Made by a program: the position numbers and the translations under genes. The notes under the pieces were generated by a model that saw only the letters and a program-made list of their open reading frames with translations, had not been told where the DNA came from and ran no database searches. This document shows, in pieces, positions 22,593 to 45,768 of a stretch of DNA of 64,000 nt. This DNA is from Micromonospora phytophila (GTDB lineage: Bacteria > Actinomycetota > Actinomycetes > Mycobacteriales > Micromonosporaceae): positions 16,992-80,991 of the forward strand of contig NZ_JAMOKF010000005.1 in the NCBI RefSeq assembly GCF_023656545.1, read 5' to 3'. The number at the start of each line of letters is the position of its first letter. The first letter of the stretch is position 1.

Positions 22593-23876
22593 TCATGATG
22601 GAGGTCTATAGCCGCCCGCGCCGTCGAGCGACGCCGGCCCTAGGCCGGGGCCCACTAAGGTGCCGTCAGGCTCCTGCCGAAGCAGTCGGATCTGCGGAAT
22701 CCGCAGCGCCAGCACCGTAGACGCCACCACCAGCAAGGCCCCGATGCCCAAGGTCATTGAGGTGCCGGCCAGGTTGGCCAGAGGGCCGGCCGACACGTAG
22801 CCGATCGGAAGCACGACGAGGGAGATCAGCCCGTCGTACGAGCTGAGCCTTGAGATGACCTGCTGGGGTACCAGCTGCTGCAACCCGGTCATCCACAGCT
22901 CGTTGAGCAGCGACACGCCGGCCGCCCCGAGCACGGCGCCGCCGACGAGGACGCCGAGCATGCTCGGGCCGGTGAGGGCGAGCAGCGGGAGAGCGGTCAA
23001 CGCGAGCCCAATATGACCGACGACCATCGGCCGCTGTGGACGCCACCGGAGCACCACCAGTCCACCCACCACGGAGCCGGCCGCCATTCCGGCGGCGACG
23101 ATACCCCAGCTCGACGAAGTGTGGCCGGCGTCAAGCAGGACCACGGGACCGAGCACCGGCAGGACCGAGGACCCCAGGTTCCAGAGGGCGTGGCAGCACA
23201 GCGTCCGCCAATACCATGGGCGGGCGGTCATCTCCTGCCACCCGACCGACAGGTCCTGGACCAGGCTGGCCCGGGCACCGCTGTCGTGCGGGGGGATCGT
23301 CAGCACCGCGAGGCACAGCGCGCTGACCAGGTAGGTTACCGCGTCGATAAGGTACGCCGGTCCGGGGCCGGTGACCGCCGCGATGACGCCCGCGGCGGCC
23401 GGGCCCAGGATGCTGGCCACCCCCCGGGAGAGCCCGAGCAGGGCGTTGGCCTGCTGGAGCTGCGTCCGTCCGATCATTTGCGGCACGATCCCAGTGATCG
23501 CCGGGCGGGATATCGCGGAGCCCGCGCCGTAGCAAACGGACGCGGCCAAGATCAGCGGCACGGTGCCGTGGCCGGTCAGGAGCAGGCATCCCACGAGGAC
23601 TTGGAGCGCGGCGAGGGAGGCGTCCGCGCCGATCAGCAGCAGCCGACGGGGTAACCGGTCGGCCAGGGCCCCGCCGACGAGGAGAAGGAGCACGCGTACC
23701 GCCATGGAGACGGCGAGCACCACGCCCACGTCGGTCGCCGAACCGCCGACGGACAGAATCGCGAACACCTGTGTCATTGGCATGAGCGCATCCCCGAAAC
23801 CGGAGGCACTCCGGCCGAGCCAGAAGAGCCGGTACCGGCGATCTCTCAGTGGGCCGAAGTCGAATCCCGTCCGCAT
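22593..23876 (-). CDS. MFS transporter, probable product exporter
   Basis: 427 residues with about twelve hydrophobic helices. The N-terminus FGPLRDRRYRLFWLGRSASGFGDAL is the entry typical of the enterobactin-exporter/MFS-3 group, and GGALADRLPRRLLL supplies the G-x-x-x-D-R-x-G/P-R-R loop between helices 2 and 3. It is the last gene of the minus-strand biosynthetic operon (21-bp gap after the ATP-grasp gene), so export of the cluster product or self-resistance is the simplest role. The short 20-residue tail is Gly/Pro-rich. The stop lies 8 bp from the truncated fragment to the left, which marks the cluster border. Confidence 0.88.
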   Translation of the reverse strand: MRTGFDFGPLRDRRYRLFWLGRSASGFGDALMPMTQVFAILSVGGSATDVGVVLAVSMAVRVLLLLVGGALADRLPRRLLLIGADASLAALQVLVGCLLLTGHGTVPLILAASVCYGAGSAISRPAITGIVPQMIGRTQLQQANALLGLSRGVASILGPAAAGVIAAVTGPGPAYLIDAVTYLVSALCLAVLTIPPHDSGARASLVQDLSVGWQEMTARPWYWRTLCCHALWNLGSSVLPVLGPVVLLDAGHTSSSWGIVAAGMAAGSVVGGLVVLRWRPQRPMVVGHIGLALTALPLLALTGPSMLGVLVGGAVLGAAGVSLLNELWMTGLQQLVPQQVISRLSSYDGLISLVVLPIGYVSAGPLANLAGTSMTLGIGALLVVASTVLALRIPQIRLLRQEPDGTLVGPGLGPASLDGAGGYRPPS

Positions 23877-23897
23877 GTCCCCGTCGCGTCCCGCCCG

Positions 23898-25145
23898 TCA
23901 GTCTTCCTCGGCGCCCGAGGTCACCGTCACCTGCGCGGGGAACCATCGGCTCACCGCCAGGAGGCGCCGCTCCACCTCCGTCTCGTCCTCCCCGATGACC
24001 ACCGCGCAGCCCGCGCGGGCTGCGGAATGGACCGTGACATCCGGAGTCGGCTCACCCACCACCAGGCGTACCTCTGCCTCGACGACCCCCGCCTGTTGCA
24101 GGACTTCCTCGACGGCGGGAGTGACGAGCACCCGGCCGGGCGCAGCCTTCAGGTGGATCCACCCGGCGGTGCCGGTGGCGGGCCAGGCCGGTCCGTCCTC
24201 ACCGATGACTGAGTCCAGCCCCATGACCGAGCGGGCCCACTCCTGGTGCAGGTCTACGCCCAGCAGGTTCTTGAACACGCCGGGGATGCCCCCGCCACCC
24301 ACCCGCCCGCCGAGTTCGCTGAACACGAGCGAGCCGGCCGGCTGAAGAAACACCTCGGTGTGGAAGACGCCGTCCGTGTAGTGCAGTGCGGTGAGTGCGG
24401 CCACCATCAGCTCCGTGGCCCGCTCGTACAGCTCCGGGTGGCGGACGCGGTGCAGCAGTACGGAGGCATATTCGATGCCGGCCTTGATGGTGATGGAATT
24501 GTTCAGGTAGCGGGAGACGGTGAGCGCCCGCAGCCGGCCGCCGCGGACCACGCCGTCGAGGTGTAGTTCCCTGCCCTCGACGAACTGCTCCACCAGCCAC
24601 AGCCGGTTCCGCAGCGCGGCATCCTCGCGCAGCGCCGCAAGGCCCACCGGATCCGGCACGACGTGAGTGTCGATCGTGGCCAGACCCGCGAGGGGCTTGA
24701 TGACCACCTTGCCGCCGACGGGCAGTTCAACGTCGTCCAACGAACCCACGACGGTGCAGTCGGTCACCGGCAGGCCGGCCTGTCGGATGAGCTGTTTCTG
24801 GACAAACTTGTCGCGCAGACCCAACGCGGTGCGATAGCCAATCCCGGGCGTGTCGTTGATCGTCCGCAACAGACTCGCCGGGATGATCTCCAGCTCGTTC
24901 GCCGGCGACACCACGTCGAAGTCGGAGAGGTCGAGGCCGTGGCGGACGAGCCCGGCCAGCACGGCCTCCGCCGAACGTGCGTCGGCCACCGGAACCACGT
25001 CGTGCAGCCACGGCGACTCCCGCGCCGCGGCCAGGTCCGCCGGTACGGCCGCGCAGGTCACTGCCGCGCCGAGTGCGTGCAGGGCCCGCAGGTCGGCGAT
25101 GGGTTTCCACCCCAAGTGCAGAACGCGGAGCGTCATGTGAATCAC
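23898..25145 (-). CDS. ATP-grasp ligase (second of two in the cluster)
   Basis: 415 residues from ATG 25145; ATG 25136 (MTLRVLHLGW) is also possible. N-terminal pre-ATP-grasp domain (about 1-105), then the ATP-binding strand GKVVIKPLAGLATID, the acidic/hinge part LWLVEQFVEGRELHLDGVV, and the metal-binding segment LVFSELGGRVGGGGIPG. The C-terminal 90 residues form a further alpha/beta part. ATP-grasp enzymes activate a carboxylate as acyl phosphate and join it to an amine. As no NRPS is present in the window, this and its neighbour are the best candidates for making amide or hydrazide bonds in the product. Substrates unknown. Confidence 0.88.
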   Translation of the reverse strand: MIHMTLRVLHLGWKPIADLRALHALGAAVTCAAVPADLAAARESPWLHDVVPVADARSAEAVLAGLVRHGLDLSDFDVVSPANELEIIPASLLRTINDTPGIGYRTALGLRDKFVQKQLIRQAGLPVTDCTVVGSLDDVELPVGGKVVIKPLAGLATIDTHVVPDPVGLAALREDAALRNRLWLVEQFVEGRELHLDGVVRGGRLRALTVSRYLNNSITIKAGIEYASVLLHRVRHPELYERATELMVAALTALHYTDGVFHTEVFLQPAGSLVFSELGGRVGGGGIPGVFKNLLGVDLHQEWARSVMGLDSVIGEDGPAWPATGTAGWIHLKAAPGRVLVTPAVEEVLQQAGVVEAEVRLVVGEPTPDVTVHSAARAGCAVVIGEDETEVERRLLAVSRWFPAQVTVTSGAEED

Positions 25146-25239
25146 CAGATCTGTTGGAAGGAGGGGGCTGGTCCGGTACGCCTGGCGCGGTGACCGGATT
25201 GCGGCTGACGGACGGCCGCCGACCGACGGCGGCGGCCGG

Positions 25240-26514
25240 CTAGCCAGCCGCCGGTATCTCGGTGCCAGTCATCCGTGGCCGCAGGAGCGTCCGGACCTCG
25301 TCTACGAGCGGGGCAAGGTCGTCGGGCGCGTCGACGCTCACCACGACCGATGCGAGGAGGGCACCCGCGTAGTCGTCCGGTGGCACGAGCACGGTGTCGC
25401 CCACCCGGCGGTGCACCGCCACCGCTTCGATCCCGGCAAGTTCGTGCAGCGCCTCGAGCCGGGGGAACCCGCCGAACACGCCGGCTGCGGGCGCGACCAC
25501 CTTGACGACCGCCGCGTAGCGGCCGGTCGGGTCGCTGGCCGGTTCCGGCGCCGCGCCGGCCGCCAGGAGCAGCGCGTTGCGGTAGAAGTTCTCCCCCGTG
25601 ACCAGCGGCACGAGGTGCGAGGTGATGTGGCCCCCGCCGATCCGGGCGGCGATCTCAACGAGCCGGGCCATGCCCTCGTCCACCTTGCACTCAAGGTGGA
25701 AGCTGCAGTTGTCCAGGCCGAACGCTCGGACCACCTCGGCTGCCAGGTTTGTCACCGCACGCTGCTCGGCCCGCGACAGGGCGGTCGGTTGCCGATGCTC
25801 GATCTCCAGGAAGTTCGCCGGATCGGTGCGCTTGTCCGTGATGGCGACGACGCGGGTGGCGCCGAGGTGGACGAACCCCTCGACGCTGTGCTCGGTGCCA
25901 GGCAGGAACTCCTCATAGACGAGTTGCCCCGGCCCGTCGAGGAAGAGCGGGTGGGTCGCCGGCGAGGCGAACCCGAGCAGGCGGCCCATGACGCTCAGCG
26001 CCTGCTCGACCCGCGCGATCCTTTCCACCCCGGCGCTGCCGGCCCCGGAGGCCGGCTTCAGCACCCCGCCCGGCCCGAGCTCGGCGATCGCCGCGGCCAG
26101 GTCGTCGGGACCTTCGACGAGGCGGAACCGGGGCACACATGCCGGGTCGACCGCCGCCAGGGCCTGTCGGCCCAACCACTTGTTGCGAGTCAACGTGGCG
26201 GCTTGGACCGAGGGCGCCGGCAGGCCGAGTTCGGCGCAGATCGTGCTCACCGTGACGACGTCGGTGTCCGACCAGGTCATCACGCCCGTGGCACCCGTGG
26301 CGCGGGCAATCTCAAGGCCCTGCGCCACGGCGGCCGGTCCACCCGGTTCCTTCATGACGTGTACCTCCGCCACGAGACCCGCCGGTGCGGGGAAACCCGC
26401 TCGTGAGGTGACGAGAACGACCCGCAGGCCGAGGTCGCGGGCGGCACGCAGCGCCGGAAGGTACTCGCTCGGGTGGGCTCGAAGGTTGTAGTACAGCACG
26501 GTCGGCTGGGTCAT
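25240..26514 (-). CDS. ATP-grasp ligase (first of two in the cluster)
   Basis: The frame is open far upstream through the antisense of other frames; ATG 26514 (MTQPTVLYYN) begins the recognisable domain. A plausible 36-residue extension from an ATG at about 26625 (AVTLAETYAAIRS) has good codon use and cannot be excluded. 424 residues from 26514. ATP-binding strand GGVLKPASGAGSAGVERI, hinge QLVYEEFLPGTEHSVEGF, metal-binding LVEIAARIGGGHITSHLV. It is related in layout to the L-amino-acid ligase/dapdiamide-type ATP-grasp enzymes that act on free amino acids. It follows the MIO enzyme gene, so a beta-amino acid or unsaturated acid is an attractive substrate (inference). Confidence 0.87.
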   Translation of the reverse strand: MTQPTVLYYNLRAHPSEYLPALRAARDLGLRVVLVTSRAGFPAPAGLVAEVHVMKEPGGPAAVAQGLEIARATGATGVMTWSDTDVVTVSTICAELGLPAPSVQAATLTRNKWLGRQALAAVDPACVPRFRLVEGPDDLAAAIAELGPGGVLKPASGAGSAGVERIARVEQALSVMGRLLGFASPATHPLFLDGPGQLVYEEFLPGTEHSVEGFVHLGATRVVAITDKRTDPANFLEIEHRQPTALSRAEQRAVTNLAAEVVRAFGLDNCSFHLECKVDEGMARLVEIAARIGGGHITSHLVPLVTGENFYRNALLLAAGAAPEPASDPTGRYAAVVKVVAPAAGVFGGFPRLEALHELAGIEAVAVHRRVGDTVLVPPDDYAGALLASVVVSVDAPDDLAPLVDEVRTLLRPRMTGTEIPAAG

Positions 26515-26732
26515 GGCGCCATCCAGGTCGGTCGGGAGTGTGGTGAACGGGTCGCGCGGAGGAGCGGACCGGATCGCCGCGTACGTCTCCGCGAGGGTCA
26601 CGGCACGGACCCCGCTTCGAGACATCGTAGGAGGTGGATCGAGTGGTACCGGCTCTCCAACGGCTCGCGCGCCGGCCCGGCCGCCCACCCGCCCGGGCCG
26701 ACGGGCCGGTGGACGGCCGGAGCCGGACGCGG

Positions 26733-28319
26733 TCAGCCGTCCAGCGCGCCGATGCCCACCAGCCTGGCGGCCAGGTCCGCGCCCGCACCGGTGTAGTGGA
26801 AGTCGCGGCTCGCTCGCAGCAGCTCGTACACCGGCGCCTGCTCGCTGTGCGGCGACACCACCGCCGACAGGGCGTCGTACCATTCGCGGGCCGCCGGGCT
26901 GAGCCGATCCGGGCCGAGGATGGCCGACGCCTGGAGGCAGGCCGCACCCAGGACCCCCAGGATGGTCGCCACGTTCTCGGTGAGTCGCAGGCAACGACGC
27001 GCCGCGTTAAGCCCCATGCTCACCACGTCCTGGTTCTGACCGTTCGACGGCAGGCTCTTCACCGACGACGGCGTGGCCAGGTCGAGGTTCTCCGACGCGA
27101 CGCTCGTCGCCAGGTACTGCGCCCCCATCAGCCCGCAAGCCAGGCCGGAGTCGGACAAGGCCAGGAAGTCGGGCAACTCACCGTTGAGGGCGGGGTCGAC
27201 GAGCCGGTTGACCTGCCGTTCGGCGAGGACGCCGATCTCGGTGAGCGCGATGGCCAGATAGTCGGCCGCAGCGGCGACGTACTGGCCGTGGAAGTTGCCA
27301 CCGTGGAACGAGGCCTCGGCGTCCTCGAAGATCAGCGGGTTGTCGTTGCAGGAGTTGAGTTCCGTCTCGACGATGCCCTTCGCGAAAGCCAGCGTGTCGA
27401 CGACCGGGCCGAGAACCTGCGGTACGCAGCGGACTGAGTAGGCGCTCTGCAGGTACACGCCGGTGTCCACCACCGTGTCCACCGACTGCTGCTCGATGGC
27501 GGACATCAGCTCAACGTGCTCCCGGGTCAGCTGGCTGCCATCGAGCAGTCCACGCAGCTTCTCGGCGACAAGGATCTGCCCATGGTGGCCCTTCAGCTCG
27601 TGCCCACGGGCGTCGAAGGCACGGGTGGAACCGCGCAGGCACTGGGTCATCACGCTTGAGAGCAGGACCGCGGAATTGAGCAGCCGGTGGGCCCTGGCGA
27701 TCGTGATCGCGGCCGTACCGGACATCGCTGAGGTGCCGTTCACCAGCGCGATGCCCTCCTTGAAGCCGAGCTCGACGGGCGGGCGCCCGAGGGCGCGCAG
27801 GGCCTCGCCGGTCGGCACCACCCTGCCCTGCCGGAACACCTCGCCCTCCCCGATCACCGACAGCGCCATGTGGCTGAGGGGCGCCAGGTCGCCGCTCGCG
27901 CCCAGCGAGCCCTGCTCCGGGATGACCGGGTGGATCCCGCTATTGAGCAGTTCGATCAGCAGAGACAAGGTCTCCGTGCTGACGCCAGAGTGCCCCTTGG
28001 CCAACGAGTTGACCCGGGCCAGCATGATCGCCCGGATGACCGGTTCCTCCAGGCTCCGCCCGCCACCGGCCGCGTGCCCCCGCAGCAGATTCACCTGCAG
28101 TTCGGTCTTGAACTTCGCCGGCACGGCGACATGCGCCATCTCGCCGAAGCCGGTGTTGACCCCGTACATCGGCCGCTGCTCGCTACCCCACACCTGGACC
28201 TTCTCGTGCGCCAAGCGTACCGACTCCATGATCTTGTCCGGGATCGAGATCGTCTCGAACTCGTTGGCTACCCGGTTGACGGCTTCGATGGTGAGGCCGG
28301 TTCCCGTCACGTCGAGCAT
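26733..28319 (-). CDS. MIO-dependent aromatic amino acid ammonia-lyase / 2,3-aminomutase
   Basis: ATG 28319 with AGGAGG upstream; 528 residues, typical length. Ala141-Ser142-Gly143 in GSLGASGDLAPLSH cyclises to the MIO cofactor, and Tyr52 in MYGVNTGFG is the catalytic base. The C-terminal loop reads SNGQNQDVVSMG: the Gln-Asp pair is found in phenylalanine/tyrosine lyases and aminomutases such as SgcC4, whereas histidine lyases have Gln-Glu there. It should therefore use an aromatic (or unusual) amino acid, giving either a beta-amino acid or an alpha,beta-unsaturated acid; lyase versus mutase cannot be told by eye. Aminomutases of this kind are common in natural-product clusters. It lies in the centre of the minus-strand operon. 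Confidence 0.92.
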   Translation of the reverse strand: MLDVTGTGLTIEAVNRVANEFETISIPDKIMESVRLAHEKVQVWGSEQRPMYGVNTGFGEMAHVAVPAKFKTELQVNLLRGHAAGGGRSLEEPVIRAIMLARVNSLAKGHSGVSTETLSLLIELLNSGIHPVIPEQGSLGASGDLAPLSHMALSVIGEGEVFRQGRVVPTGEALRALGRPPVELGFKEGIALVNGTSAMSGTAAITIARAHRLLNSAVLLSSVMTQCLRGSTRAFDARGHELKGHHGQILVAEKLRGLLDGSQLTREHVELMSAIEQQSVDTVVDTGVYLQSAYSVRCVPQVLGPVVDTLAFAKGIVETELNSCNDNPLIFEDAEASFHGGNFHGQYVAAAADYLAIALTEIGVLAERQVNRLVDPALNGELPDFLALSDSGLACGLMGAQYLATSVASENLDLATPSSVKSLPSNGQNQDVVSMGLNAARRCLRLTENVATILGVLGAACLQASAILGPDRLSPAAREWYDALSAVVSPHSEQAPVYELLRASRDFHYTGAGADLAARLVGIGALDG

Positions 28320-28371
28320 GATGCCTCCTGATGCTGAGCGTTCCGCGCGGTCGAAGCTGAACAGTCGCTGG

Positions 28372-29511
28372 TCAGCAGTGATCGCGGTAACTGTCGTAGG
28401 GAATGCGGTGGTGGAGCTCCGGGGAGCCCAGCTCCGCCTGCAGTTCGTGCAGCTTCGTCGAGTTGTGTCCGCGTACCTCGGCGTCCGGCCAGTCCGTCAC
28501 TTGGAGCGGCAGACCCCAGCGCGCCTGCGGCACGGCGCCGCGCAGCAGCTTGGCCTGATATGAGGACGGACCGAGCCAGAGTTCCGTCCGCCCGAGGGCG
28601 TAGGCCCGCTCGATCGGGCGGTAGTAGACCAGCTCGAAATACTCGGCGGCGTTGCCCGCCTCGGCGTAGTCGAACCCGGCCGTGCGGACGCAGGACGACC
28701 GTCCGTGGTCCATCACCAGCGCGAAGCCCGCTACGCACCCGTCGCGTCCGCACGCCAGGACCGCGCTGACGTCGTCCAGCGCGTCCGCCTGGCGTTCCAT
28801 CATCACCGTGGCCGCGGCCAGGTCGAGCCCGCCCCCGTACTTCTTCGCGGTCTGCAGGCCGAGCCGGACCACGTCCGTGACGCAATCCCGGTAGCGCCGG
28901 GAGAAGACCTGGTATCCGGCCTGCGCGAAGCGCCGTCGGTCGGCGCGGACGGCAGAGCGACGCCGCTTCGGCAGGGCCGCGAGGTAGTCGCCGAAGTCCG
29001 TTCCGGGGAGCGAGATCAGGCACTCACTTTTGAGCGCCAGCGGGGTCGGGCCGCCGACGAGCGGTCGCAACAGGACCATGCTTTCGTCGTCGAGGTAGGG
29101 CCACCAGGCGACCGCCGTGACGCCCCGCAGCATCTCCTGCGCCGCGGCGACCAGCTCGCGGAAGGCGCTGACCCGCTGATCCCGGGTGAGGTCAGCCCGC
29201 ACCAGCAGGTTGTTGTTGTAGCCGTGCCGGTTGCCCAGGAGGACCTGCTCGGCGTCCGCCGCGCCGGCCGCCGGAAGCTGCCGGTGGAGCTGGTAGTTGC
29301 CGTGCGTCTCCCGGCTGACCCGGTACACGGGCAGGGCTGCGGCCAGGGTGCCTGAAAGGTCGTAGGCGAGCAGATGGGAGCTGCTGATCCCGGGTCGCTC
29401 CACCTCCTGGAAGCGGTGCCACGCATGGCTGTCGTAGAGCCGTCCCCCGAGGCGGTCCCAAGCCTCGACGGAAACCTCGCGCACCGACCCGACCTGGCGT
29501 ACGTCGAACAA
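28372..29511 (-). CDS. FemAB/GNAT-like (CelD-type) acyl- or aminoacyl-transferase
   Basis: Start is TTG 29511 (FDVRQVGSV), 14 bp after the upstream stop. 379 residues. The C-terminal half has the GNAT/Fem fold features: LISLPGTDFGDYLAALPKRRRSAVRADRR (basic helix), GFALVMDHG, and ELVYYRPIERAYALGRTELWLGPSSYQAKLLRG. This matches the peptidogalycan-biosynthesis/recognition (PF04339-like) and CelD families. Related Fem-type enzymes in other pathways move amino acids from aminoacyl-tRNA onto small molecules (for example in pacidamycin), so an amide-forming step is a reasonable inference. Acyl-CoA use is equally possible. Overlap-free tight spacing places it in the operon. Confidence 0.75.
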   Translation of the reverse strand: MFDVRQVGSVREVSVEAWDRLGGRLYDSHAWHRFQEVERPGISSSHLLAYDLSGTLAAALPVYRVSRETHGNYQLHRQLPAAGAADAEQVLLGNRHGYNNNLLVRADLTRDQRVSAFRELVAAAQEMLRGVTAVAWWPYLDDESMVLLRPLVGGPTPLALKSECLISLPGTDFGDYLAALPKRRRSAVRADRRRFAQAGYQVFSRRYRDCVTDVVRLGLQTAKKYGGGLDLAAATVMMERQADALDDVSAVLACGRDGCVAGFALVMDHGRSSCVRTAGFDYAEAGNAAEYFELVYYRPIERAYALGRTELWLGPSSYQAKLLRGAVPQARWGLPLQVTDWPDAEVRGHNSTKLHELQAELGSPELHHRIPYDSYRDHC

Positions 29512-29525
29512 CTGGCCACCGCCCC

Positions 29526-30923
29526 TCAGATGATCTTTCCGGGATTGAGGATCCCGAGGGGGTCGAGGGCCAGCTTGACCGCCGCCATCACGTCCACGCC
29601 CGCGCCGTGCTCCAGGCGCATCAGCGAGCGCTTGCCCTGGCCGATGCCATGTTCCCCGGAACAGGTGCCGCCCACCTCGATGGCACGGGTAGCGAGCGTC
29701 CGGGCGAACGCGGTCGCCCGCTGGCGGGAGAGGTCGTCGTCGGGGTCGACCATCACCAGCATGTGGAAGTTGCCGTCACCGACGTGCCCGCACAGGGGTG
29801 CGTCGAGACCGGCTCGTTCGGCCTCGGCGACGGCAAACTCGATGCAGCCAGCCAGCGCGGTCAGCGGGACGCACACGTCCGTCGGCAACCCGGTCCGACC
29901 GGGAAACAGGGCGTGCGTCGCCCACCAGAGGTCGTGGCGGCTACGCCACAGCCGCCGTCCGTCGTCGGCGTCCTCGGCCAGCTCCACCCCCGCGGCGCGG
30001 TGGTCGGCGAGGATGGCGCCGAGCACCGGCAACTCGGCGGCGACCCGGGGCGCGCTGCCGCTGAGCTCGAAGAAGAGATGCGGGGTATCCGGCAGGTCGA
30101 GGCCGGAGTACTGATTGGTCGCCCGGATCGAGGTGGGGTCCAGCAGTTCGACCCGGGACAGGAACAGGCCCGCCCGGCGCGCGGCGATCATCGCCGCGAC
30201 GGCGTCGCCGACCGAGGCGAAGCGCGCCGAACCGGTCTGCACCCGCTCCGCAATCGGCTGCACGCGCAGGGTCAGCTCCACGAAGACGCCGAGCGTGCCT
30301 TCGGAGCCGACGAACAACCGGAGCAGGTCGTAGCCGCTGGCGGACTTCGCCGCTCGGCTACCCACCCGGATCTGTTCGCCGGAGGCCAGGACCACCTCCG
30401 CGGCGATCACGTTGTCCCGCATGGTGCCGTACCCGACCGCCCGGGTCCCGCTGGCCCGGGTTCCCGCCATGCCGCCGAGGGTCGCGTTCGCGCCCGGGTC
30501 CACCGGGAAGAACAGGCCTTGGGCCCGGAGCGCGTCGTTGAGGTCCTCGCGCCGCACGCCCGGCTGCACCGTGACGGTGAGGTCATCCCGCGAGACGTTC
30601 AGGACCGCGTTCATCCGCGACAGGTCCAGGCAGACCCCCCCGAACGGGGCGTTGGTCTGCCCTTCGAGGGACGTCCCGCCGCCGTACGGGAGCAGCGGCA
30701 CCTGGTGCCGGCTGGCGATCCGGACCGCCTCGCGGACGTCCGCCGCGCTCTCGGCGTACAGCACCGCCTGTGGGGCCTGCGGGCGCAGCCACCCCTGCGC
30801 TGCGACGTGACCCACGACCACGTCCGGATCGGTGCAGAAGCGGTCAGCGAAGTGGGCCGTTAGGGCGGGCCCGGCCTCGCCGAGGTCGTTGCGGACGGTG
30901 GGGGAAGGCAGAGCGGAAGTCAT
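29526..30923 (-). CDS. FAD-linked oxidase of the D-lactate/glycolate dehydrogenase (GlcD) type
   Basis: ATG 30923 overlaps the TauD stop (ATGA), so translation is coupled. 465 residues. N-terminal PCMH-type FAD domain: LLPYGGGTSLEGQ and VDPGANATLGGMAGTRASGTRAVGYG, where the pyrophosphate loop lies. C-terminal cap: the FAD-oxidase-C motifs CGHVGDGNFHMLV (metal-binding His/Asp) and CSGEHGIGQGKR, which in D-2-hydroxyacid dehydrogenases bind the substrate carboxylate and metal. The expected reaction is oxidation of a D-2-hydroxy acid to a 2-oxo acid. It is probably the step following hydroxylation by the upstream dioxygenase, but the substrate is unknown. Confidence 0.88.
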   Translation of the reverse strand: MTSALPSPTVRNDLGEAGPALTAHFADRFCTDPDVVVGHVAAQGWLRPQAPQAVLYAESAADVREAVRIASRHQVPLLPYGGGTSLEGQTNAPFGGVCLDLSRMNAVLNVSRDDLTVTVQPGVRREDLNDALRAQGLFFPVDPGANATLGGMAGTRASGTRAVGYGTMRDNVIAAEVVLASGEQIRVGSRAAKSASGYDLLRLFVGSEGTLGVFVELTLRVQPIAERVQTGSARFASVGDAVAAMIAARRAGLFLSRVELLDPTSIRATNQYSGLDLPDTPHLFFELSGSAPRVAAELPVLGAILADHRAAGVELAEDADDGRRLWRSRHDLWWATHALFPGRTGLPTDVCVPLTALAGCIEFAVAEAERAGLDAPLCGHVGDGNFHMLVMVDPDDDLSRQRATAFARTLATRAIEVGGTCSGEHGIGQGKRSLMRLEHGAGVDVMAAVKLALDPLGILNPGKII

Positions 30924-31966
30924 GCCACGGTCCACCCTGGCTCGTCGGCGAGCGCCACGAGAATCCGTCGTGGCCCTTCGAACGAAGATCTGCCGTGCGC
31001 CGTCAGAATGTTGTCGATGAGCAGAAGGTCGCCCTTCTCGAGCCTGACCCCCACCTCGAGGGTGGCGAGGCTCCGCGCGATGGCCACCGCCTGCTCGGGC
31101 GGTACCGGCGCGCCGTCGCCGAAGAGGACGTTGTCCAGCGACTCGGGCCGGGTCGCCAGCGCCTCGCGCAGCTCCTTCTCGTCCTGCGTACGCCCGTCGC
31201 GCGCGGCCCACTCGATCATGCAGGCGGGCGCGAAGAAGTGCGCCTGATTGTGCCAGACCAACCGGTCGGTCACCGGATGCCGACGAACCGCCGGCATCCG
31301 CTCCTGGGTGAGCTGGAGCCAGTCATCGTCCAGCCAGGTCGCGTGCCAGCCGCGTCGTCGGGAGATGTCGTCTACCTGGCGGGAGTCGTCGGTGTCGAAA
31401 ACTTCCTGCCAGGTCTTCTGGATCCCCGCCTTGCTGACCATCGAGCTGCGGGACGGCAAGGACCGGCGAAGTCGGAGGCCACGGCGTTCGAACTCGTCGC
31501 GGCAGTCACGGGGAATCGACTCCAGCGCGGCGGCCATGTCACCGAGCAGGGACAGCCCGCCGCGGGTCGCGGGGGTGAGGCACAGGAACGCCACCCGGTG
31601 CGGCCCGTTGCTCGTGTACGCCATCTCCTGGTGCAACGGAATCGACCAGGCCGGCGGCGTCTCGGTCGCCGTCATGATCCGCCCGTGCAGCCGGGTACGG
31701 GGCGAGGTGCCACCCACGTAGTCGCGCAGTTGGGGGAAGGCAGCGGCGATGACCGACTCGTACTTCTCGGCCGCCGTGACCCGGGGAAACCCCCGGATCA
31801 AAAGGGCGCCGGACCGGTGCAGCGCGTCGGCGATCTCGGCCCGGTGGCGTTGCATCCAGGCCGCGACCGTCCGGGGTTCGGCATGGACGCCGTCGAGGGA
31901 CCACACGGTAGGCGCTCCCGGACGGGCGGGCGCCGTCCTGCTGGTGACGACAACATCACGAGACAT
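30920..31966 (-). CDS. TauD/TfdA family Fe/2-oxoglutarate dioxygenase (SyrP-like)
   Basis: ATG 31966 with GGAG upstream; 348 residues. The facial triad is His112-x-Glu114 in LHQEMAY and His324 in LTAHGRSSF, followed by the 2-oxoglutarate Arg in GPRRILVAL. HxE in place of HxD is characteristic of SyrP-like amino acid beta-hydroxylases rather than taurine dioxygenase. TRGGLSLLGDM is the other conserved segment. In natural-product pathways such enzymes hydroxylate an amino acid side chain, commonly Asp or Glu, free or carrier-bound. It lies 35 bp downstream of the FAD amine oxidase gene and overlaps the FAD-linked oxidase gene, so the pair may hydroxylate and then oxidise the same carbon. Confidence 0.88.
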   Translation of the reverse strand: MSRDVVVTSRTAPARPGAPTVWSLDGVHAEPRTVAAWMQRHRAEIADALHRSGALLIRGFPRVTAAEKYESVIAAAFPQLRDYVGGTSPRTRLHGRIMTATETPPAWSIPLHQEMAYTSNGPHRVAFLCLTPATRGGLSLLGDMAAALESIPRDCRDEFERRGLRLRRSLPSRSSMVSKAGIQKTWQEVFDTDDSRQVDDISRRRGWHATWLDDDWLQLTQERMPAVRRHPVTDRLVWHNQAHFFAPACMIEWAARDGRTQDEKELREALATRPESLDNVLFGDGAPVPPEQAVAIARSLATLEVGVRLEKGDLLLIDNILTAHGRSSFEGPRRILVALADEPGWTVA

Positions 31967-32001
31967 GGTGCTCCAAACTTGACTGCGGACGATCAGACGA
32001 C

Positions 32002-33069
32002 TCATGCGTGGACGAGCAACGACTGCGCCGCCCGTTCGGCCAGGGCCGGGGATAGCCGCACACCGGCGCCAGACCCGCCGACGATCGCCACTAGGCCGGG
32101 CGACAGTTCCCGCACGGCGGGTTCGTTGCCGGTGCGGTAGAGGTCGTAGCCGGCGACGCCGTCGATGCCGGCCACCGGCAGGTCGGGCCACACCGGTCGG
32201 GCCCGGGCGAGCCCCTCCGCCAGGTCCGCGTCGTCGAAAAGCGGCGACGTCCCGGGGTGCTCCGGCGCGTACCGGCTCCGATGGAAGTTGACGTGGCACA
32301 CCGCGGGGTCCGGCGAGGGGATGATGGAGACGGACGCGCCGGCCCAGACGATGCTCGGCGCGCCGGCGACGGGTCGCGGGAGTCTCACCCGGAGGCTCGA
32401 AATACGCTTGATCCGTCCCTCCGCCGGGTCGATCCGCCCGGATGCGCCGACGACCTCCGGAGACGGGAACGCGCCCACGCACAACGCCACCGCCCGGCCA
32501 CGCGCCAGGACCGTCCCGCCGGACTCGACGACCCAGCGGTCGCCGTGGCGTCGGATCAGGTCGACCGGGGTGTGCTCGCGCACGGCGATGCGGTCGGCGG
32601 CACGCACCTGGTCCCGCACGAAAGCTGCCGTGTCGAAGACGAAGCTGTGCTGCCGGCCGTCCAGCACCAGCCATTCCGCGTCGGGGACGATCTCACCGTA
32701 CGCCTGCGCGGCGAACTCGCGTCGTTCGGCCGCAGCGGGCTCGAGCGGGGGCACCGACAGCATCCGGCTGAACTCGTCGAGGTCCCGCCGGCGGACCAGA
32801 TAGAGCGTTTCGTGCTCGGTGAGGTAGGCGCGCAGCGTCGACTCGCTTCGGAACAGCAGATCGCTACGCGTCACCAGCCGACGCAGCGCACCGGTACGCG
32901 CCGCGGGGATGCCGGCGTTCAGCGAGACGCCGCTGGCGCCGGCGAGCAGCGGGCCACGGTCGACGACCAGCACCGTGGCGCCGGGCACCTGCCGCGCGTA
33001 GGTGGCGGCGAGCAGGCAACCGAGCGCTCCGCCACCAACGAGCACAAGGTCGGCGTCGTGCTCGGTCAT
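32002..33069 (-). CDS. FAD-dependent amine oxidase (D-amino-acid-oxidase fold), hydrazine-releasing candidate
   Basis: ATG 33069 overlaps the cupin stop (ATGA). 355 residues. The dinucleotide-binding loop is VLVGGGALGCLLAATYA, followed by VLVVDRG; the C-terminal VAIVGGSGAGVRLSPALA completes the FAD site. This is the DAO superfamily. In the s56-p1 and triacsin pathways a homologous flavoprotein (Spb39, Tri27) oxidatively cleaves the lysine-derived hydrazine conjugate to release hydrazinoacetic acid. The gene order here (MetRS-like, N-hydroxylase, cupin, this oxidase) makes the same job likely. The sequence does not by itself prove which C-N bond is cut. Confidence 0.85.
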   Translation of the reverse strand: MTEHDADLVLVGGGALGCLLAATYARQVPGATVLVVDRGPLLAGASGVSLNAGIPAARTGALRRLVTRSDLLFRSESTLRAYLTEHETLYLVRRRDLDEFSRMLSVPPLEPAAAERREFAAQAYGEIVPDAEWLVLDGRQHSFVFDTAAFVRDQVRAADRIAVREHTPVDLIRRHGDRWVVESGGTVLARGRAVALCVGAFPSPEVVGASGRIDPAEGRIKRISSLRVRLPRPVAGAPSIVWAGASVSIIPSPDPAVCHVNFHRSRYAPEHPGTSPLFDDADLAEGLARARPVWPDLPVAGIDGVAGYDLYRTGNEPAVRELSPGLVAIVGGSGAGVRLSPALAERAAQSLLVHA

Positions 33070-33494
33070 GACCACGCGAGCGAGAAGGTCACCAACGGTT
33101 CGTCGCCAGTGCACCAGACCTGGTGGGTGGCTCGCGACGGGATGACGACCACCTGGCCCGGCGCGAGGTCGCGGCGCTCACCGTTGAGCTCCAACCTTCC
33201 CCGGCCGCTGGAGATGAACCACAGCTCGACCGCGTCGTGCTGGTCGAACGGACTGCTCGCCCCTGGCTTCAGTTCGTCCCAGAACGCTTCCAGGCTGGCC
33301 GGCGCTCCGGCCAGTACGGCGGTCGGAGGCAGGACGTAACTCCCGCCCCGGGCGTCCGGGCTCTGGTGCTCCATCCGGAAGGACAGGCGTACGCTGCCGT
33401 CGGTGTCGGTCAGCCCGGGCGGCAGGGCGGTCTCCCCGATGGCCAGTTGATCGGCGCTGGTCATCTCCGTGTATCCCCCGTTCATCATGATCAT
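33066..33494 (-). CDS. Stand-alone cupin, predicted N-N bond-forming half of a split hydrazine synthetase
   Basis: ATG 33494 overlaps the N-hydroxylase stop (ATGA). 142 residues, a single cupin domain at about 65-140. Motif 1 is FDQHDAVELWFISSGRG, i.e. D-x-H-x3-E rather than the canonical H-x-H-x3-E; motif 2 is PGQVVVIPSRATHQVW with its His. A His/Glu/His-type set for one metal (zinc in the characterised fusions) is thus retained. In Spb40, Tri28 and PyrN this domain is fused N-terminal to the MetRS-like domain and rearranges the ester of an amino acid with N6-hydroxylysine to an N-N bond. Here it is a separate gene, with the N-hydroxylase gene between it and the MetRS-like gene. Confidence 0.82.
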   Translation of the reverse strand: MIMMNGGYTEMTSADQLAIGETALPPGLTDTDGSVRLSFRMEHQSPDARGGSYVLPPTAVLAGAPASLEAFWDELKPGASSPFDQHDAVELWFISSGRGRLELNGERRDLAPGQVVVIPSRATHQVWCTGDEPLVTFSLAWS

Positions 33495-34777
33495 GGCGTC
33501 AGGTCCTGCGCGATGTCGCCTCGGGCGGTGGCGAAGTGTTCGCGCTCGAGAATGGAGTTGAGGATCACGGCGCTGCGCCAGGGCACCACCGCGAGGTTCG
33601 AGTCGGCCAGGCCGTGCGTCGTCCTGGCAGCGTTCTGCACGAAGATCCGGCCGGGTTTCACTGTGTCCAGCCGCAGGGAGTAGTCCTCCGCGATCGGCGG
33701 TGCGGCGCTGCGCTGGTCCTGGTCGAGCAGGCCCTGGAGAAAGCCGGGTACGCAGTGCCGGTAGCCGGTGGCAAGGACGACCACATCCGAGTCGATTTCC
33801 CGGCGGGTGCGGTTGAGGCGGCTGGACACCGTCGCGCGGTATCCGTCGCCGCGCGGTGCGATGTCGACGAGCCGCGTCGAGGTGAGCAGCTCGTACGGGA
33901 TCGGCCGGTCGGTCAGATAGTCCTGGAAGTAGAGCCGCTCGTAGATCTGCTGGAGCAGTTCCTCCGAGATGCCATCGCTGGCGAGCAGGTCGGAGCGCAA
34001 CAGGTCCTCGCGCACGGCCTCGTCCAGCCGAGAGAAGAATTCGGTGTGCCGCGGGTTGAACAACTCGTTGGTGAACGCCGAGTCGTCCAGGGGCTTGAAG
34101 CCGCTGCGCGATGTCAACCAGGTCAGCTGGCTCGGCCAGCCGACCTCGCCGCAGAGGATGTCAGAGACGATCTCCGCCGAGCTCTGGCCACCGCCGACGA
34201 CGACCACCGAGCGGCCCTCGAGATCCCGCACGAGTTCGCTGTACCGCGATGAGTGCAGGAGGGTTTCCGACAGGTGCGGCAACGCGCAGGCGGGGACGTG
34301 CGGGGAGGCGCCCACCCCGCAGACCACGTGGTTGGACCGGTGGCGCTGCCCGTTCGCTGAGGTTACGACGAAGGATTGTCCGTCGTGGCTGACGTCGGTG
34401 ACCTTCGCGCCGAACCGGACGGACGGCAGACTGCGGGCGACCCAGGCGTAGTACTGGATGAATTCGTGCCGGCTGACCGCCGAGCGGTGCGCGATGAACG
34501 AGCGGTACAGGCGGCCGTGCAGGGCGAGGAAGTTCAGGAAGCTGAACCGGTTGGTGGGGTCGACCACGCTCACCAGGTCCTTGAGCGGCGAGACCTGAAG
34601 CTTCGCACCGGCCGGCAGCAGGCCCCGGTGCCAGCCCGGCGTCGGCTGCGATTCCAGGACTAACAGGCGCAGCTCCGGCAACGTGTTCGCCAGTGCCGCC
34701 AGGCTCAGGTTCGCGGGGCCGGCTCCGATCGCGACCACGTCGTAACAGTCGCCGCCGGCGATGAGCGGCCTGGTCAC
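33491..34777 (-). CDS. Flavin-dependent L-lysine/L-ornithine N-monooxygenase
   Basis: GTG 34777 overlaps the MetRS-like stop (GTGA). 428 residues. FAD site AIGAGPANLSLAALA (about 17-31); the family-specific LQVSPLKDLVSVVDP and FSFLNFLALHGRL; NADPH site VVVVGGGQSSAEIVSDI (about 195-211); the substrate/active-site region FTNELFNP; and the terminal VVLATGYRHCVPGF. This is the IucD/SidA/PvdA fold, which hydroxylates the side-chain amine of Lys or Orn. Beside a MetRS-like protein and a cupin it corresponds to Spb38/Tri26, which make N6-hydroxylysine, the electrophilic nitrogen donor for N-N coupling. No siderophore genes are present, so a siderophore role is unlikely. Confidence 0.92.
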   Translation of the reverse strand: MTRPLIAGGDCYDVVAIGAGPANLSLAALANTLPELRLLVLESQPTPGWHRGLLPAGAKLQVSPLKDLVSVVDPTNRFSFLNFLALHGRLYRSFIAHRSAVSRHEFIQYYAWVARSLPSVRFGAKVTDVSHDGQSFVVTSANGQRHRSNHVVCGVGASPHVPACALPHLSETLLHSSRYSELVRDLEGRSVVVVGGGQSSAEIVSDILCGEVGWPSQLTWLTSRSGFKPLDDSAFTNELFNPRHTEFFSRLDEAVREDLLRSDLLASDGISEELLQQIYERLYFQDYLTDRPIPYELLTSTRLVDIAPRGDGYRATVSSRLNRTRREIDSDVVVLATGYRHCVPGFLQGLLDQDQRSAAPPIAEDYSLRLDTVKPGRIFVQNAARTTHGLADSNLAVVPWRSAVILNSILEREHFATARGDIAQDLTP

Positions 34778-36399
34778 CGCGGGCCGACGAATTCATCCGG
34801 GCGGGCGAGTGCGGCGACCTTCACCGGGTCCAGGGAGAGCGCCGGCAGACGTGGTGACCCCGTCGGAACCTTGGCGGGAAGCCCCTCGAGCTGGACGAAG
34901 CTGGGCTCCGCCTCGTGACCGAGCCACGCCCAAAGGACGCGTGCCCACCTCGGCATGATGGGGTAGGTGAGCAGCGACGTCACTTTGCACCACCAGTACG
35001 GCTCCCGATCGGCGAGCCCGTCCCCACCGGTGGTGCACCACTCGTGCACGAGCTTGGCGGCGACGGCCAGGTCGAAACTCCCAGGGGCCAGCGAGTCGTT
35101 GAAGGGGACGACGAGCCGTCGTACCGCCGCGGCTCCGGCCGCGCTCAGCGGCAGGAGTCCGGACGACGTCGCCAACCGTGCCGCCGCCTCCCGGGTCCGC
35201 TTCTCCACCACCGACTCCAGCGTCTCCCGCACGTAGCGCAACAGGTCACTGAGGCGCAGGTCGCTGTCCGAGGAACTGGGACTGATCGTGGCAAGGTACA
35301 TGCGCAGGGCGTCGACCGAGAGACCTGACCGGACGTAGTCGTGCGCCCAGATCGCGTGCCGTCGACTGGTGCTGAACTTCTCGCCGTCCAGCAGCATGTA
35401 CCGGGTGATGATGTGGTGGTCGAAGGGCTCCCAGTCGCTTTCCTTGTCCATCAGGGCGATGTGGAACATCCACGGCAGGACCGCGTCGTAGCCGCCCGTG
35501 GTGATCTTGACGACTGGGCTGTGCTGGGAGAAGGGATCCGGCAGCCCGCTGATCCTGCGGAATTCCTCGGCGACGGCGTTCATGGAGACGTGCGCGCCGA
35601 TCGCGTAGCTGTTGTGCACGACGGCGTCACCGAGGTCGCCGACCTGCCAGGGGACTCCCCAGCCGAGGGGGTGCGTCAGCGGCAGGCGGGTGCCGTTCCA
35701 GCGGACATAGTCCAGGTACAGGTGGTGATACGCGGCCGGGAAGCGGGTAGCGATGTTGTCCATGGTGAAGACGTCCCCGGCGTCCAGCGTCGCCGCACCC
35801 GTCTTCGCCCAGGTCAGTTCCCCGTCCTCAGCGAGGCGGGGACGGGGATTCACCAGTTGCGTGACGTCGAACCAGAGGCCGCACTCCTCGCAGCAGGCTC
35901 CGGCGGCGTCGGCCGCGCAGCGGGGACAGTTGCCCAGGACGAAACCACCGACAAGGAACTGGCCGGTGGCGGCGCCCCGCGCGTACCGGGCACGCGAGTA
36001 CTGAATCCGCCCCCGTCGCTCCAGGAACCGCGCGATCCGGTGGCTGCTCTCCGCGTACCGGAGCGCTCGATCCGGTGCGTGGGTGTTGAAGAAGGAATCC
36101 TGCGGCATGTCAAGGCCGGTCAATGTCTCCGCGGCAAGATCGTGGTAGAACGCCGCGATCCGTTCCGGCGCCGTTCCCTGCTGTCGGGCCGCGAGCAGGA
36201 CGTACGACTCGCGGGCGTCGGTGGTCGACACGCGGCGGACGCGGTGGCCAAGCATTTCGAGGTGGCGCGCGACCACATCGGCGTTCAACAACGGGCCGGA
36301 GATGTGACCGAGATGCAGCGGCCCGTTCGGAGTGTGGTACGTGGAACTGACCAGATGATCTATCGGCGCAGGCAAGCTTACAATGGACGCTCGGCTCAA
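34774..36399 (-). CDS. Methionyl-tRNA-synthetase-like amino acid ligase, predicted half of a split hydrazine synthetase
   Basis: Start is TTG 36399 behind a G-rich stretch (GGGGGATGAG); 541 residues. HIGH-type motif His29-Leu-Gly-His32 in NGPLHLGHISG; two Cys pairs of a zinc knuckle (Cys158/161 and Cys170/173); KMSKS-like KFSTS at 341-345. The tail of about 180 residues resembles a reduced anticodon-domain region. The protein is shorter than housekeeping MetRS and sits in a coupled operon with a Lys N-hydroxylase, so it is not the cellular MetRS. In Spb40/Tri28/PyrN the equivalent domain activates an amino acid (Gly or Glu) with ATP and esterifies it to N6-hydroxylysine, before the cupin makes the N-N bond. 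The amino acid used here is unknown. Confidence 0.9.
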   Translation of the reverse strand: MSRASIVSLPAPIDHLVSSTYHTPNGPLHLGHISGPLLNADVVARHLEMLGHRVRRVSTTDARESYVLLAARQQGTAPERIAAFYHDLAAETLTGLDMPQDSFFNTHAPDRALRYAESSHRIARFLERRGRIQYSRARYARGAATGQFLVGGFVLGNCPRCAADAAGACCEECGLWFDVTQLVNPRPRLAEDGELTWAKTGAATLDAGDVFTMDNIATRFPAAYHHLYLDYVRWNGTRLPLTHPLGWGVPWQVGDLGDAVVHNSYAIGAHVSMNAVAEEFRRISGLPDPFSQHSPVVKITTGGYDAVLPWMFHIALMDKESDWEPFDHHIITRYMLLDGEKFSTSRRHAIWAHDYVRSGLSVDALRMYLATISPSSSDSDLRLSDLLRYVRETLESVVEKRTREAAARLATSSGLLPLSAAGAAAVRRLVVPFNDSLAPGSFDLAVAAKLVHEWCTTGGDGLADREPYWWCKVTSLLTYPIMPRWARVLWAWLGHEAEPSFVQLEGLPAKVPTGSPRLPALSLDPVKVAALARPDEFVGPR

Positions 36400-36524
36400 C
36401 TCATCCCCCGTGATAGAAGTCGTCCGTGCGATTGAATTTATAGCAGGAGATCACTTTGCGTGGTCAACGCAAGTCTCGCATGGTGGGAGTCGCACAGCAT
36501 GTCCAACCACATTGAGCAGGGCAT

Positions 36525-36637
36525 ATGTCCGGCACATTTCGGCTTCCTGTCGCTTGGTTCGTGCTGGACGAAGCGGGACCAAGCCCCCGCTGCGACTCGC
36601 AAGTCCCGTCCATTGGGACAACGATTGTGCCGGACAT
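36525..36637. repeat. 113-bp inverted-repeat (MITE-like or structured leader) unit
   Basis: ATGTCCGGCACA at 36525-36536 is exactly complementary to TGTGCCGGACAT at 36626-36637. Inside lie nested hairpins: GCTTGGT/ACCAAGC (36552-36558 and 36578-36584) enclosing TCGT/ACGA, and GTCCC/GGGAC (36603-36607 and 36615-36619). Perfect terminal repeats around a short non-coding core suggest a miniature transposable element; a conserved regulatory RNA or paired operator is the alternative. No clear target-site duplication is visible. Confidence 0.65.
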
Positions 36638-36650
36638 TGATCCTGTGTCA

Positions 36651-36662
36651 CGGTCCGGACCG
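36651..36662. promoter_or_regulatory. 12-bp perfect palindrome, possible operator
   Basis: CGGTCCGGACCG is self-complementary over its whole length and lies about 95 bp before the GNAT start and about 250 bp before the MetRS-like start. The position fits an operator for a dimeric repressor serving either operon. Only sequence symmetry supports this. Confidence 0.4.
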
Positions 36663-36755
36663 GTGATCCGGAAGAGGCCCTCTTCTCTCCAGCGTGCGTC
36701 CGAACATGACGCTTGAGGGGGCTTGGCCGGATTCATTCAACGGGGGTAATGGCAC

Positions 36756-37304
36756 ATGGAAATCAAGACCCATCGCCTCGAACTGGTTCCGTGGAACGCG
36801 GAACTGGCCAGCGACTTCGTGGCACTCGTGCAAAATCCCGATGTCATCAGATTCGGCTACGGGACACCACCGACCGCAGGCGCGGCGCTCGCCCAACTGA
36901 GCGAGATGGTCCAGGAGTGGGAAACCAACGGCTTCGGCGCGTACGCGATCCGGGACCGCGAGACCGGCGTCATCGGCGGCTACACCGGCGTGCACGTGCC
37001 GCGTACGCTTCCCGACCTCTTTCCTGCGCTGGAGGTCGGCGTTCGGGTGATTCCCAAGTGGTGGAAGCGTGGGGTGGCGTTCGAGGCCATCGCGCCGGTC
37101 ATCGACCTCGGCTTCGAGGTGCTGAACGCCCAGCGCCTGGTGGGCGTGTTCCTGCCGGCGAACAAGGGGGCCCGCACCATCAACGCGGGAGTGGGCATGA
37201 CGTTCCGCCAGCATGCCCTGCACCCGCGGACGGCCATGCCGCTCGAGGTGCACGAGGTGACCCGGGACGGCTGGACCGAGGCGAGATCGCAGCTGGGCCT
37301 GTGA
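36756..37304 (+). CDS. GNAT family acyltransferase of the cluster
   Basis: ATG 36756 about 10 nt after GGGGGT; 182 residues. The N-terminus [14 protein letters not shown] entry (here [13 protein letters not shown]) and [19 protein letters not shown] mark the RimJ/RimL-type GNAT fold; [22 protein letters not shown] is the acetyl-CoA loop, and [28 protein letters not shown] follows. It is the first gene of the plus-strand operon, 52 bp before the PKS. In the triacsin pathway a GNAT-type enzyme acylates the hydrazine intermediate, so protection or capping of a hydrazine nitrogen is a good hypothesis here. Transfer of the PKS-derived acyl chain is another possibility. Confidence 0.85.
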
Positions 37305-37356
37305 CCGGTGGTCGAGAGCCGGCGGAGCGCACCTTCGGGGCCACGCGGAGGCGGCG

Positions 37357-45768: not shown

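What the first reader, a model, noticed from the sequence alone, without database searches (positions are those of the whole stretch)
22593..45768. Unrecognised hydrazine (N-N bond) gene cluster combining a hydrazine synthetase set, an MIO enzyme, ATP-grasp ligases and a short PKS
Seen: one coupled minus-strand operon (MetRS-like, Lys/Orn N-hydroxylase, cupin, FAD amine oxidase, TauD dioxygenase, GlcD-type oxidase, FemAB-like transferase, MIO lyase/aminomutase, two ATP-grasp ligases, MFS exporter) faces a GNAT-PKS operon across a 356-bp gap. Known: MetRS-like/cupin, N6-lysine hydroxylase and an FAD oxidase are the set that makes hydrazino acids in s56-p1 (Spb38-40) and triacsin (Tri26-28), and PyrN is the pyrazomycin case. 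Inferred: the product links a hydrazine-derived unit to an amino acid and a C5 acyl chain by amides. I cannot match this set to a named cluster.
Basis: partly seen in the sequence, partly recalled or inferred. Interest (0 to 1): 0.93.

Follow-up and report, generated by a model that had tools for sequence, protein, structure and literature searches.

The report
Uncharted hydrazine-making bacterial gene cluster
An actinobacterium, probably a Micromonospora, carries a gene cluster that encodes relatives of the enzymes known to join two nitrogen atoms, packed together with enzymes likely to make beta-tyrosine, link amino acids and add a five-carbon chain, so it is predicted to make an unknown hydrazine-containing compound; just behind it lies a second copy of the enzyme SHMT, of a type seen in other families, behind a ZTP-riboswitch match, which might protect or feed the producer.

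Summary
On the minus strand, MetRS-like, N-hydroxylase, cupin, DAO-type oxidase, TauD and GlcD-type genes are joined by five 4-base stop/start overlaps, followed by FemAB, MIO, two ATP-grasp and MFS genes; GNAT and a two-module PKS run the other way across 356 bp. Motifs of the hydrazine synthetase set are intact, and the MetRS-like protein falls in a branch apart from housekeeping MetRS and from azaserine-type fused proteins. The MIO protein passes the tyrosine 2,3-aminomutase cut-off; the FemAB model resembles tRNA-dependent amino-acid transferases; the PKS starts with a KSQ and is predicted to give a C5 chain. None of 44 other MetRS-like loci shows an MIO, TauD or GlcD hit, though many are short. 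A sister locus probably exists in Micromonospora chersina (86-96%).

Searches of open-access papers listed no cluster with this set; MIBiG was not searchable. Product and substrates are untested. New variant of a known kind.

The parts
34774..36399 (-). MetRS-like (class I tRNA ligase family) protein, 541 aa, TTG start; predicted amino-acid-activating half of a hydrazine synthetase
   Evidence: HLGH at 29, KFSTS at 341, CPRC 158 and CEEC 170
33491..34777 (-). Lys/Orn-type flavin N-hydroxylase, 428 aa
   Evidence: PF13434, 324 bits; 4-base overlap with the MetRS-like gene
33066..33494 (-). cupin, 142 aa; predicted zinc N-N-forming half (D84, H86, E90, H124)
   Evidence: residues line up with RHS1 D63/H65/E69/H103
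32002..33069 (-). DAO-type FAD oxidase, predicted to cleave the N-N conjugate (Spb39/Apy10 role)
   Evidence: no solved relative at E 1e-3
30920..32005 (-). TauD-type Fe/2OG dioxygenase (substrate unknown)
29526..30923 (-). GlcD/D-lactate-dehydrogenase-like FAD oxidase (substrate unknown)
28372..29511 (-). FemAB-like protein; predicted aminoacyl-tRNA-dependent transferase
26733..28319 (-). MIO enzyme; predicted tyrosine 2,3-aminomutase (ASG at 141-143)
25240..26688 (-). ATP-grasp ligase 2 (start 26688 or 26625 unsure)
23898..25145 (-). ATP-grasp ligase 1
22593..23876 (-). MFS exporter
36400..36755 (.). 356-bp divergent intergenic region, predicted to hold both promoters
   Evidence: gene ends; promoters not tested
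36756..37304 (+). GNAT acyltransferase, 182 aa
37357..45768 (+). type I PKS, 2803 aa: KSQ-AT-ACP / KS-AT-DH-KR-ACP, no thioesterase hit
45835..45916 (+). ZTP-riboswitch aptamer match (RF01750, 49.6 bits, gathering 39, model 1-86)
45938..47215 (+). second-copy serine hydroxymethyltransferase of a type seen in other families (start set here at GTG 45938)

Best explanation
This is a biosynthetic gene cluster that encodes a complete set of relatives of the MetRS-like/cupin hydrazine synthetase system (with N-hydroxylase and FAD oxidase), and it is predicted to make a peptide-like compound that likely joins a hydrazino acid to beta-tyrosine, another amino acid and a C5 acyl chain. Proposed order (all inferred): the N-hydroxylase oxidises the side-chain amine of lysine or a homologue; the MetRS-like protein adenylates an amino acid and esterifies it to the hydroxylamine; the zinc cupin rearranges the ester to an N-N bond; the DAO-type oxidase cuts the conjugate to a free hydrazino acid; the TauD and GlcD-type enzymes, whose genes overlap with this set, oxidise a pathway intermediate; the MIO enzyme supplies beta-tyrosine; two ATP-grasp ligases and a FemX-like tRNA-dependent transferase form amide bonds; the KSQ-started PKS gives a C5 chain (3-hydroxypentanoyl if the degenerate DH is dead, pentenoyl if not), which leaves without a thioesterase, perhaps via the GNAT; the MFS protein exports. 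The second SHMT behind a ZTP-riboswitch match is read as part of the locus, for glycine supply or self-protection.
For: Families. Overlapping genes. Catalytic residues. Tree: 62 MetRS-like rows are split from 7 housekeeping rows at SH-aLRT 100; the window sits in a 41-row branch (96) whose five named loci (L010, L011, L012, L017, L021) all show N-hydroxylase and cupin hits. MIO over the TIGR03832 cut-off (517 against 501) with Gln where the genome's other, HAL-like copy has Glu. FemAB model pLDDT 90, best folds FemX and the tRNA-dependent peptide synthases Sbb17/Sba18. PKS motifs: Q206 in place of the first KS cysteine, YASH, HAFH.
Against: No substrate of any enzyme is shown. FemAB and MIO relatives (49%, 76%) are both on a 10,197,557-base Dactylosporangium contig for which no MetRS-like relative was listed (candidate lists were capped), so that pair may be a separable module. 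L007 and L008, with closer MetRS-like kin (45%), show no N-hydroxylase or cupin hit in the DNA held. The PKS DH motifs are altered and no release domain was hit. The GNAT's role is open.
Confidence: 0.7

Rival explanations
1. Two adjacent pathways: a hydrazinoacetate-type module (MetRS-like to GlcD, PKS, GNAT) and a separate beta-tyrosine peptide module (FemAB, MIO, ATP-grasp) that merely sit together.
For: MIO and FemAB relatives share a Dactylosporangium contig without a listed MetRS-like relative (adjacency not known, lists capped); the 4-base overlaps stop at GlcD; 0 of 44 other MetRS-like loci have an MIO hit.
Against: All eleven genes are co-directional with short gaps; M. chersina has MetRS-like, FemAB and MIO relatives on contigs of one and the same length; ATP-grasp hits occur in 11 (type 1) and 16 (type 2) of 44 MetRS-like loci, a few of them weak, and a FemAB hit in one (L047), which ties these to hydrazine-type loci.
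Confidence: 0.2
2. The MetRS-like protein activates tyrosine or beta-tyrosine, and the MIO enzyme acts on the hydrazino acid, giving a beta-hydrazino acid or releasing hydrazine.
For: Tyr-accepting hydrazine synthetases are reported (PMC8664883, PMC11705231); the mapped pocket looks aromatic-lined, with Ser272 and Ala306 where carrier-fused kin such as P0042 have Phe and Asn (the map to E. coli MetRS pocket residues is recalled).
Against: Close clade members share much of the pocket pattern, and none of the named loci seen has an MIO hit; no reference enzyme of known specificity was in the alignment by name; MIO action on hydrazino acids was not met in anything I read.
Confidence: 0.12
3. The ZTP-riboswitch match and SHMT are an ordinary acquired one-carbon gene that happens to lie at the border and plays no part in the pathway.
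For: ZTP-riboswitch matches were found in 60 of 61 sampled genus genomes (own included), and 29 of the 30 fetched best-scoring loci have an SHMT behind; the aptamer separates SHMT from the PKS; the own genome shows one other SHMT, none of the genus ZTP type and no second ZTP match, so this copy may replace it (the assembly is only 88% complete).
Against: The SHMT groups with ZTP-SHMTs of other families (about 75-77%), and no copy above 57% identity was found in the 60 other sampled genus genomes; it starts 169 bases behind the PKS stop.
Confidence: 0.4

Closest known systems
s56-p1 (Spb38/39/40) hydrazinoacetate set
   Same: N-hydroxylase, DAO-type oxidase, MetRS-like and cupin functions
   Different: Spb40 is one fused protein (PMC10445470 and PMC8664883, passages); here two genes; the s56-p1 cluster was not at hand for comparison
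triacsin / azaserine / N-nitroglycine / dob clusters
   Same: hydrazine set; a GNAT-type enzyme (Tri31, AzsS, DobB succinylate hydrazinoacetate); azaserine lists an ATP-grasp and an MFS gene; dob has a PKS
   Different: no AMP ligase, free carrier protein or C45 peptidase hit among the cluster genes scanned; the window adds MIO, FemAB, TauD, GlcD
stand-alone MetRS-like/cupin pairs: albofungin Afn8/Afn9, the RHS1 locus, and the paired entries of Table 2 of PMC11705231
   Same: MetRS-like and cupin as separate proteins, with an N-hydroxylase in the first two; separate genes are therefore not new in themselves
   Different: sequences and neighbours were not compared here
Streptomyces loci L011-L020 (S. 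paradoxus, S. massasporeus and others)
   Same: ATP-grasp 2, N-hydroxylase, cupin, MetRS-like and ATP-grasp 1 hits in all ten; DAO and MFS by Pfam in L012
   Different: MetRS-like 31-32%; no MIO, TauD, GlcD, FemAB, GNAT or SHMT hit; a beta-eliminating lyase in L012; product unknown to me
Micromonospora chersina contig of 228,621 bases
   Same: MetRS-like 88%, FemAB 86%, MIO 96%
   Different: gene order, PKS and SHMT could not be read

Membership tests
MetRS-like/cupin hydrazine synthetase | class I synthetase HIGH/KMSKS-type motifs kept | tested here: met
   HLGH 29 and KFSTS 341; conserved in alignment A1
MetRS-like/cupin hydrazine synthetase | groups apart from housekeeping MetRS with hydrazine-locus kin | tested here: met
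   (quick tree, SH-aLRT only; no characterised enzyme by name in it)
MetRS-like/cupin hydrazine synthetase | cupin zinc ligands and essential Glu of RHS1 | tested here: met
   D84, H86, E90, H124
MetRS-like/cupin hydrazine synthetase | N-hydroxylase and DAO-type oxidase alongside | tested here: met
MetRS-like/cupin hydrazine synthetase | N-N bond formation | not testable with these tools
   needs protein or culture
fused Spb40/Tri28/PyrN didomain type | cupin and MetRS-like domains in one protein | tested here: not met
   separate genes 33066-33494 and 34774-36399
triacsin/azaserine hydrazonoacetyl pathway | AMP ligase, free carrier protein, C45 peptidase | tested here: not met
   no such Pfam hit in the cluster genes; 30 window proteins were scanned in all, not every ORF
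tyrosine 2,3-aminomutase (MIO) | ASG triad and TIGR03832 score over cut-off | tested here: met
   ASG 141-143; 517.3 against 501
tyrosine 2,3-aminomutase (MIO) | beta-tyrosine product rather than lyase activity | not testable with these tools
   assay needed
FemX-like tRNA-dependent transferase | FemX-type fold | tested here: met
   Foldseek hits 1xf8, 7z5y, 9wqx; identity 12-14% for these three
FemX-like tRNA-dependent transferase | use of aminoacyl-tRNA | not testable with these tools
   GNAT pairs solved with acetyl-CoA (2wpx, with 2wpw) are also among the hits
KSQ loading module PKS | Gln for Cys in first KS | tested here: met
   VDAGQASS, Q206
ZTP riboswitch | covariance score over gathering, full aptamer | tested here: met
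   49.6 against 39, model 1-86; outer stem has five non-standard pairs
ZTP riboswitch | ligand binding and control of SHMT | not testable with these tools
   in-line probing or reporter needed
self-resistance gene in a biosynthetic cluster | second copy, near the cluster, of foreign type | tested here: met
   (criteria recalled from resistance-guided mining; they also fit a supply gene)
self-resistance gene in a biosynthetic cluster | copy is insensitive to the product | not testable with these tools
   product unknown

The most novel reading that the evidence does not exclude
The cluster makes a hydrazine antimetabolite that disables pyridoxal-phosphate enzymes of one-carbon metabolism, and the producer survives by switching on a spare, acquired SHMT through a ZTP riboswitch that senses the very one-carbon starvation the compound causes: product-responsive self-protection by riboswitch.
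Probability: 0.15. Interest if true: 0.85.

Novelty: new variant of a known kind. Interest (0 to 1): 0.6.

Why it matters
The hydrazine-synthetase clusters with known products that I read about mostly use the fused protein (Spb40, Tri28, PyrN, AzsN, NngM); stand-alone pairs are known but mostly without a product. This one combines a stand-alone set with enzymes predicted to make beta-tyrosine, tRNA- and ATP-driven amide bonds and a short polyketide chain, with no NRPS hit among the genes scanned. A laboratory host and 15N labelling could test it directly, and the ZTP-SHMT pair gives a testable guess at the product's target.

Tried and rejected
Rejected: housekeeping MetRS (the genome has a separate MetRS-type gene, 32% identical, and the tree splits them). 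Rejected: MIO as plain histidase (below the HutH cut-off; Gln for Glu). Rejected: SHMT as a genus-core allele. Left open: lysine against ornithine or diaminobutyrate for the N-hydroxylase; the MetRS-like substrate (the pocket read-out is exploratory). Led nowhere: the first contig scan with the single MetRS-like sequence (no relative confirmed); FemAB in 354 family genomes (42 match at 1e-15, own included, the others at 27-35% identity); flank searches for an empty site (scattered matches, lists capped, no clean site seen). Eight literature searches bore on the gene set and two on SHMT and ZTP (no listed paper held 'ZTP riboswitch', 15 of 532 listed).

Papers: PMC11705231 section 15 read whole plus passages; PMC8664883, PMC13274452, PMC13061610, PMC10445470 passages only; all other papers search listings only. 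Rows dropped: the tree used 69 rows; P0007, P0023, P0102 and other fused or near-identical rows of the 102 proteins and the loci were left out. Many are cut by contig ends, and tblastn misses distant kin (the DAO gene of L012 was found only by Pfam). The type 1 and type 2 ATP-grasp hits of L047 fall on one gene; the type 2 hits of L027 and L042 are weak (38-39 bits).

Full report
Setting. The window is G000:C488:16992-80991 of a 6.26-Mb, 628-contig genome, 88% complete.

Anatomy. The minus-strand genes run from 36399 to 22593. MetRS-like/N-hydroxylase, N-hydroxylase/cupin, cupin/DAO, DAO/TauD and TauD/GlcD overlap by 4 bases at stop/start if the overlapping start codons are used, so TauD and GlcD are as tightly coupled to the N-N set as its members are to each other. 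FemAB follows after 14 bases, MIO after 52, then two ATP-grasp genes and an MFS gene. Across 356 bp, GNAT and PKS run on the plus strand. Families come from Pfam and NCBIfam.

Hydrazine set. The MetRS-like protein keeps HLGH, KFSTS and two CxxC pairs. The cupin keeps D84, H86, E90 and H124, which line up with the zinc ligands of RHS1, its essential Glu69 among them (D63, H65, E69, H103). In a 69-row quick tree 62 MetRS-like rows are split from 7 housekeeping rows (100). Most of them fall into a 20-row branch (93) that holds the cupin-fused and carrier-fused proteins, and a 41-row branch (96) with the window; one long row, L026, is outside both. The 20-row branch is not purely fused: L047 has its cupin as a separate gene. 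Database members of the window's branch (P0001-P0036) list no cupin domain. The window groups with M. chersina (100) and P0003 (99). Characterised enzymes were not in the tree by name; the azaserine/NNG type is recognised by its added carrier domain. Stand-alone pairs as such are known.

Rarity. At E 1e-45, 2 of 354 family genomes and 3 of 396 phylum genomes (own included in each) match the MetRS-like protein. Among 44 other MetRS-like loci, tblastn at 1e-3 found N-hydroxylase in 25, ATP-grasp 2 in 16, ATP-grasp 1 in 11, FemAB in 1 (L047), and MIO, TauD, GlcD, GNAT and SHMT in none. Many loci are cut short, so these are lower bounds. L011-L020 show that two ATP-grasp genes with N-hydroxylase, cupin and MetRS-like gene form a recurring Streptomyces block, with DAO and MFS by Pfam in L012.

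Tailoring. The MIO protein passes the tyrosine 2,3-aminomutase cut-off (517.3 against 501), is below the HutH cut-off (491.6 against 539), matches solved tyrosine aminomutases best, and is 58% identical to a Chondromyces crocatus protein named tyrosine 2,3-aminomutase. FemAB: five relatives, at 49-86%, were listed besides itself (capped candidates); the model (pLDDT 90) resembles FemX and the tRNA-dependent peptide synthases Sbb17/Sba18, but also tandem GNAT proteins solved with acetyl-CoA. ATP-grasp 1 models as an L-amino acid ligase (pLDDT 75). The GlcD-type protein's nearest solved relative is a probable D-lactate dehydrogenase; the TauD-type protein's are At3g21360 and 9yut.

PKS. The first KS has Gln (Q206) for the catalytic Cys; AT1 carries YASH, AT2 HAFH; a KR Rossmann motif is present; the DH has HLVHDLPVLP (Gly to Asp) and VEAALH (Asp to Glu); two carrier domains are hit; no thioesterase was hit. 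The motif meanings are recalled. This predicts a propionyl starter and one malonyl extension, hence C5; 3-hydroxypentanoyl if the DH is dead.

ZTP and SHMT. Rfam finds a ZTP-riboswitch match at 45835-45916 (49.6 bits), 66 bases behind the PKS stop; SHMT starts at about 45938. The genome has one other SHMT, 53% identical. In 61 genus genomes (own included), 46 match at 1e-100, none of the others above 57% identity. ZTP matches occur in 60 of 61 genus genomes, and 29 of the 30 fetched best-scoring loci have an SHMT of another type (41-45%) behind. In 394 class genomes (own included) 97 match at 1e-138; the best are 75-77%, and 19 of 19 fetched (without the own) carry a ZTP match. In a 61-row tree the window SHMT falls with those 19 (100), away from both genus types. 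So the pair is probably acquired. Replacement of the own genus-type copy cannot be excluded: the assembly is incomplete and shows no SHMT of the genus ZTP type and no second ZTP match.

Reading. Known chemistry (PMC8664883 passages; PMC11705231 section 15) gives N-hydroxylation, aminoacyl ester, zinc-cupin rearrangement and oxidative cleavage. What follows is inference: beta-tyrosine, amide bonds, C5 chain. Hydrazines attack pyridoxal-phosphate enzymes (general knowledge, recalled), and SHMT is one; glycine, a reported partner of N6-hydroxylysine, is its product. Supply and self-protection are both open.

Novelty. Eight searches of an open-access library listed no cluster with this set; subscription papers and MIBiG were not searchable. 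The kind is known, the variant looks new.

Noticed in passing
   Followed up: yes
window 19665-20753: IS110-type transposase left of the cluster.
   Followed up: no
window 41446-41520 (-): Rfam ASpks antisense match inside the PKS (54 bits, gathering 52); possibly only conserved PKS coding sequence.
   Followed up: no
L007, L008: MetRS-like (45%) and ATP-grasp hits without an N-hydroxylase or cupin hit in the DNA held; L007 has ArgRS, homoserine dehydrogenase and Ku genes near.
   Followed up: partly
L047 8615-17855: Metagenome locus with N-hydroxylase, cupin, sulfotransferase, FemAB, MFS, MetRS-like and ATP-grasp genes: another uncharted hydrazine-type set.
   Followed up: partly
P0108 and P0113 (Dactylosporangium sp. 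CA-139114): FemAB (49%) and MIO (76%) relatives on a contig of 10,197,557 bases with no MetRS-like relative listed; adjacency not known.
   Followed up: no
window 54634-55314, 57983-59083, 61683-63581: TMEM175-, royal-jelly-protein- and LtrA-family genes in the right flank.
   Followed up: no
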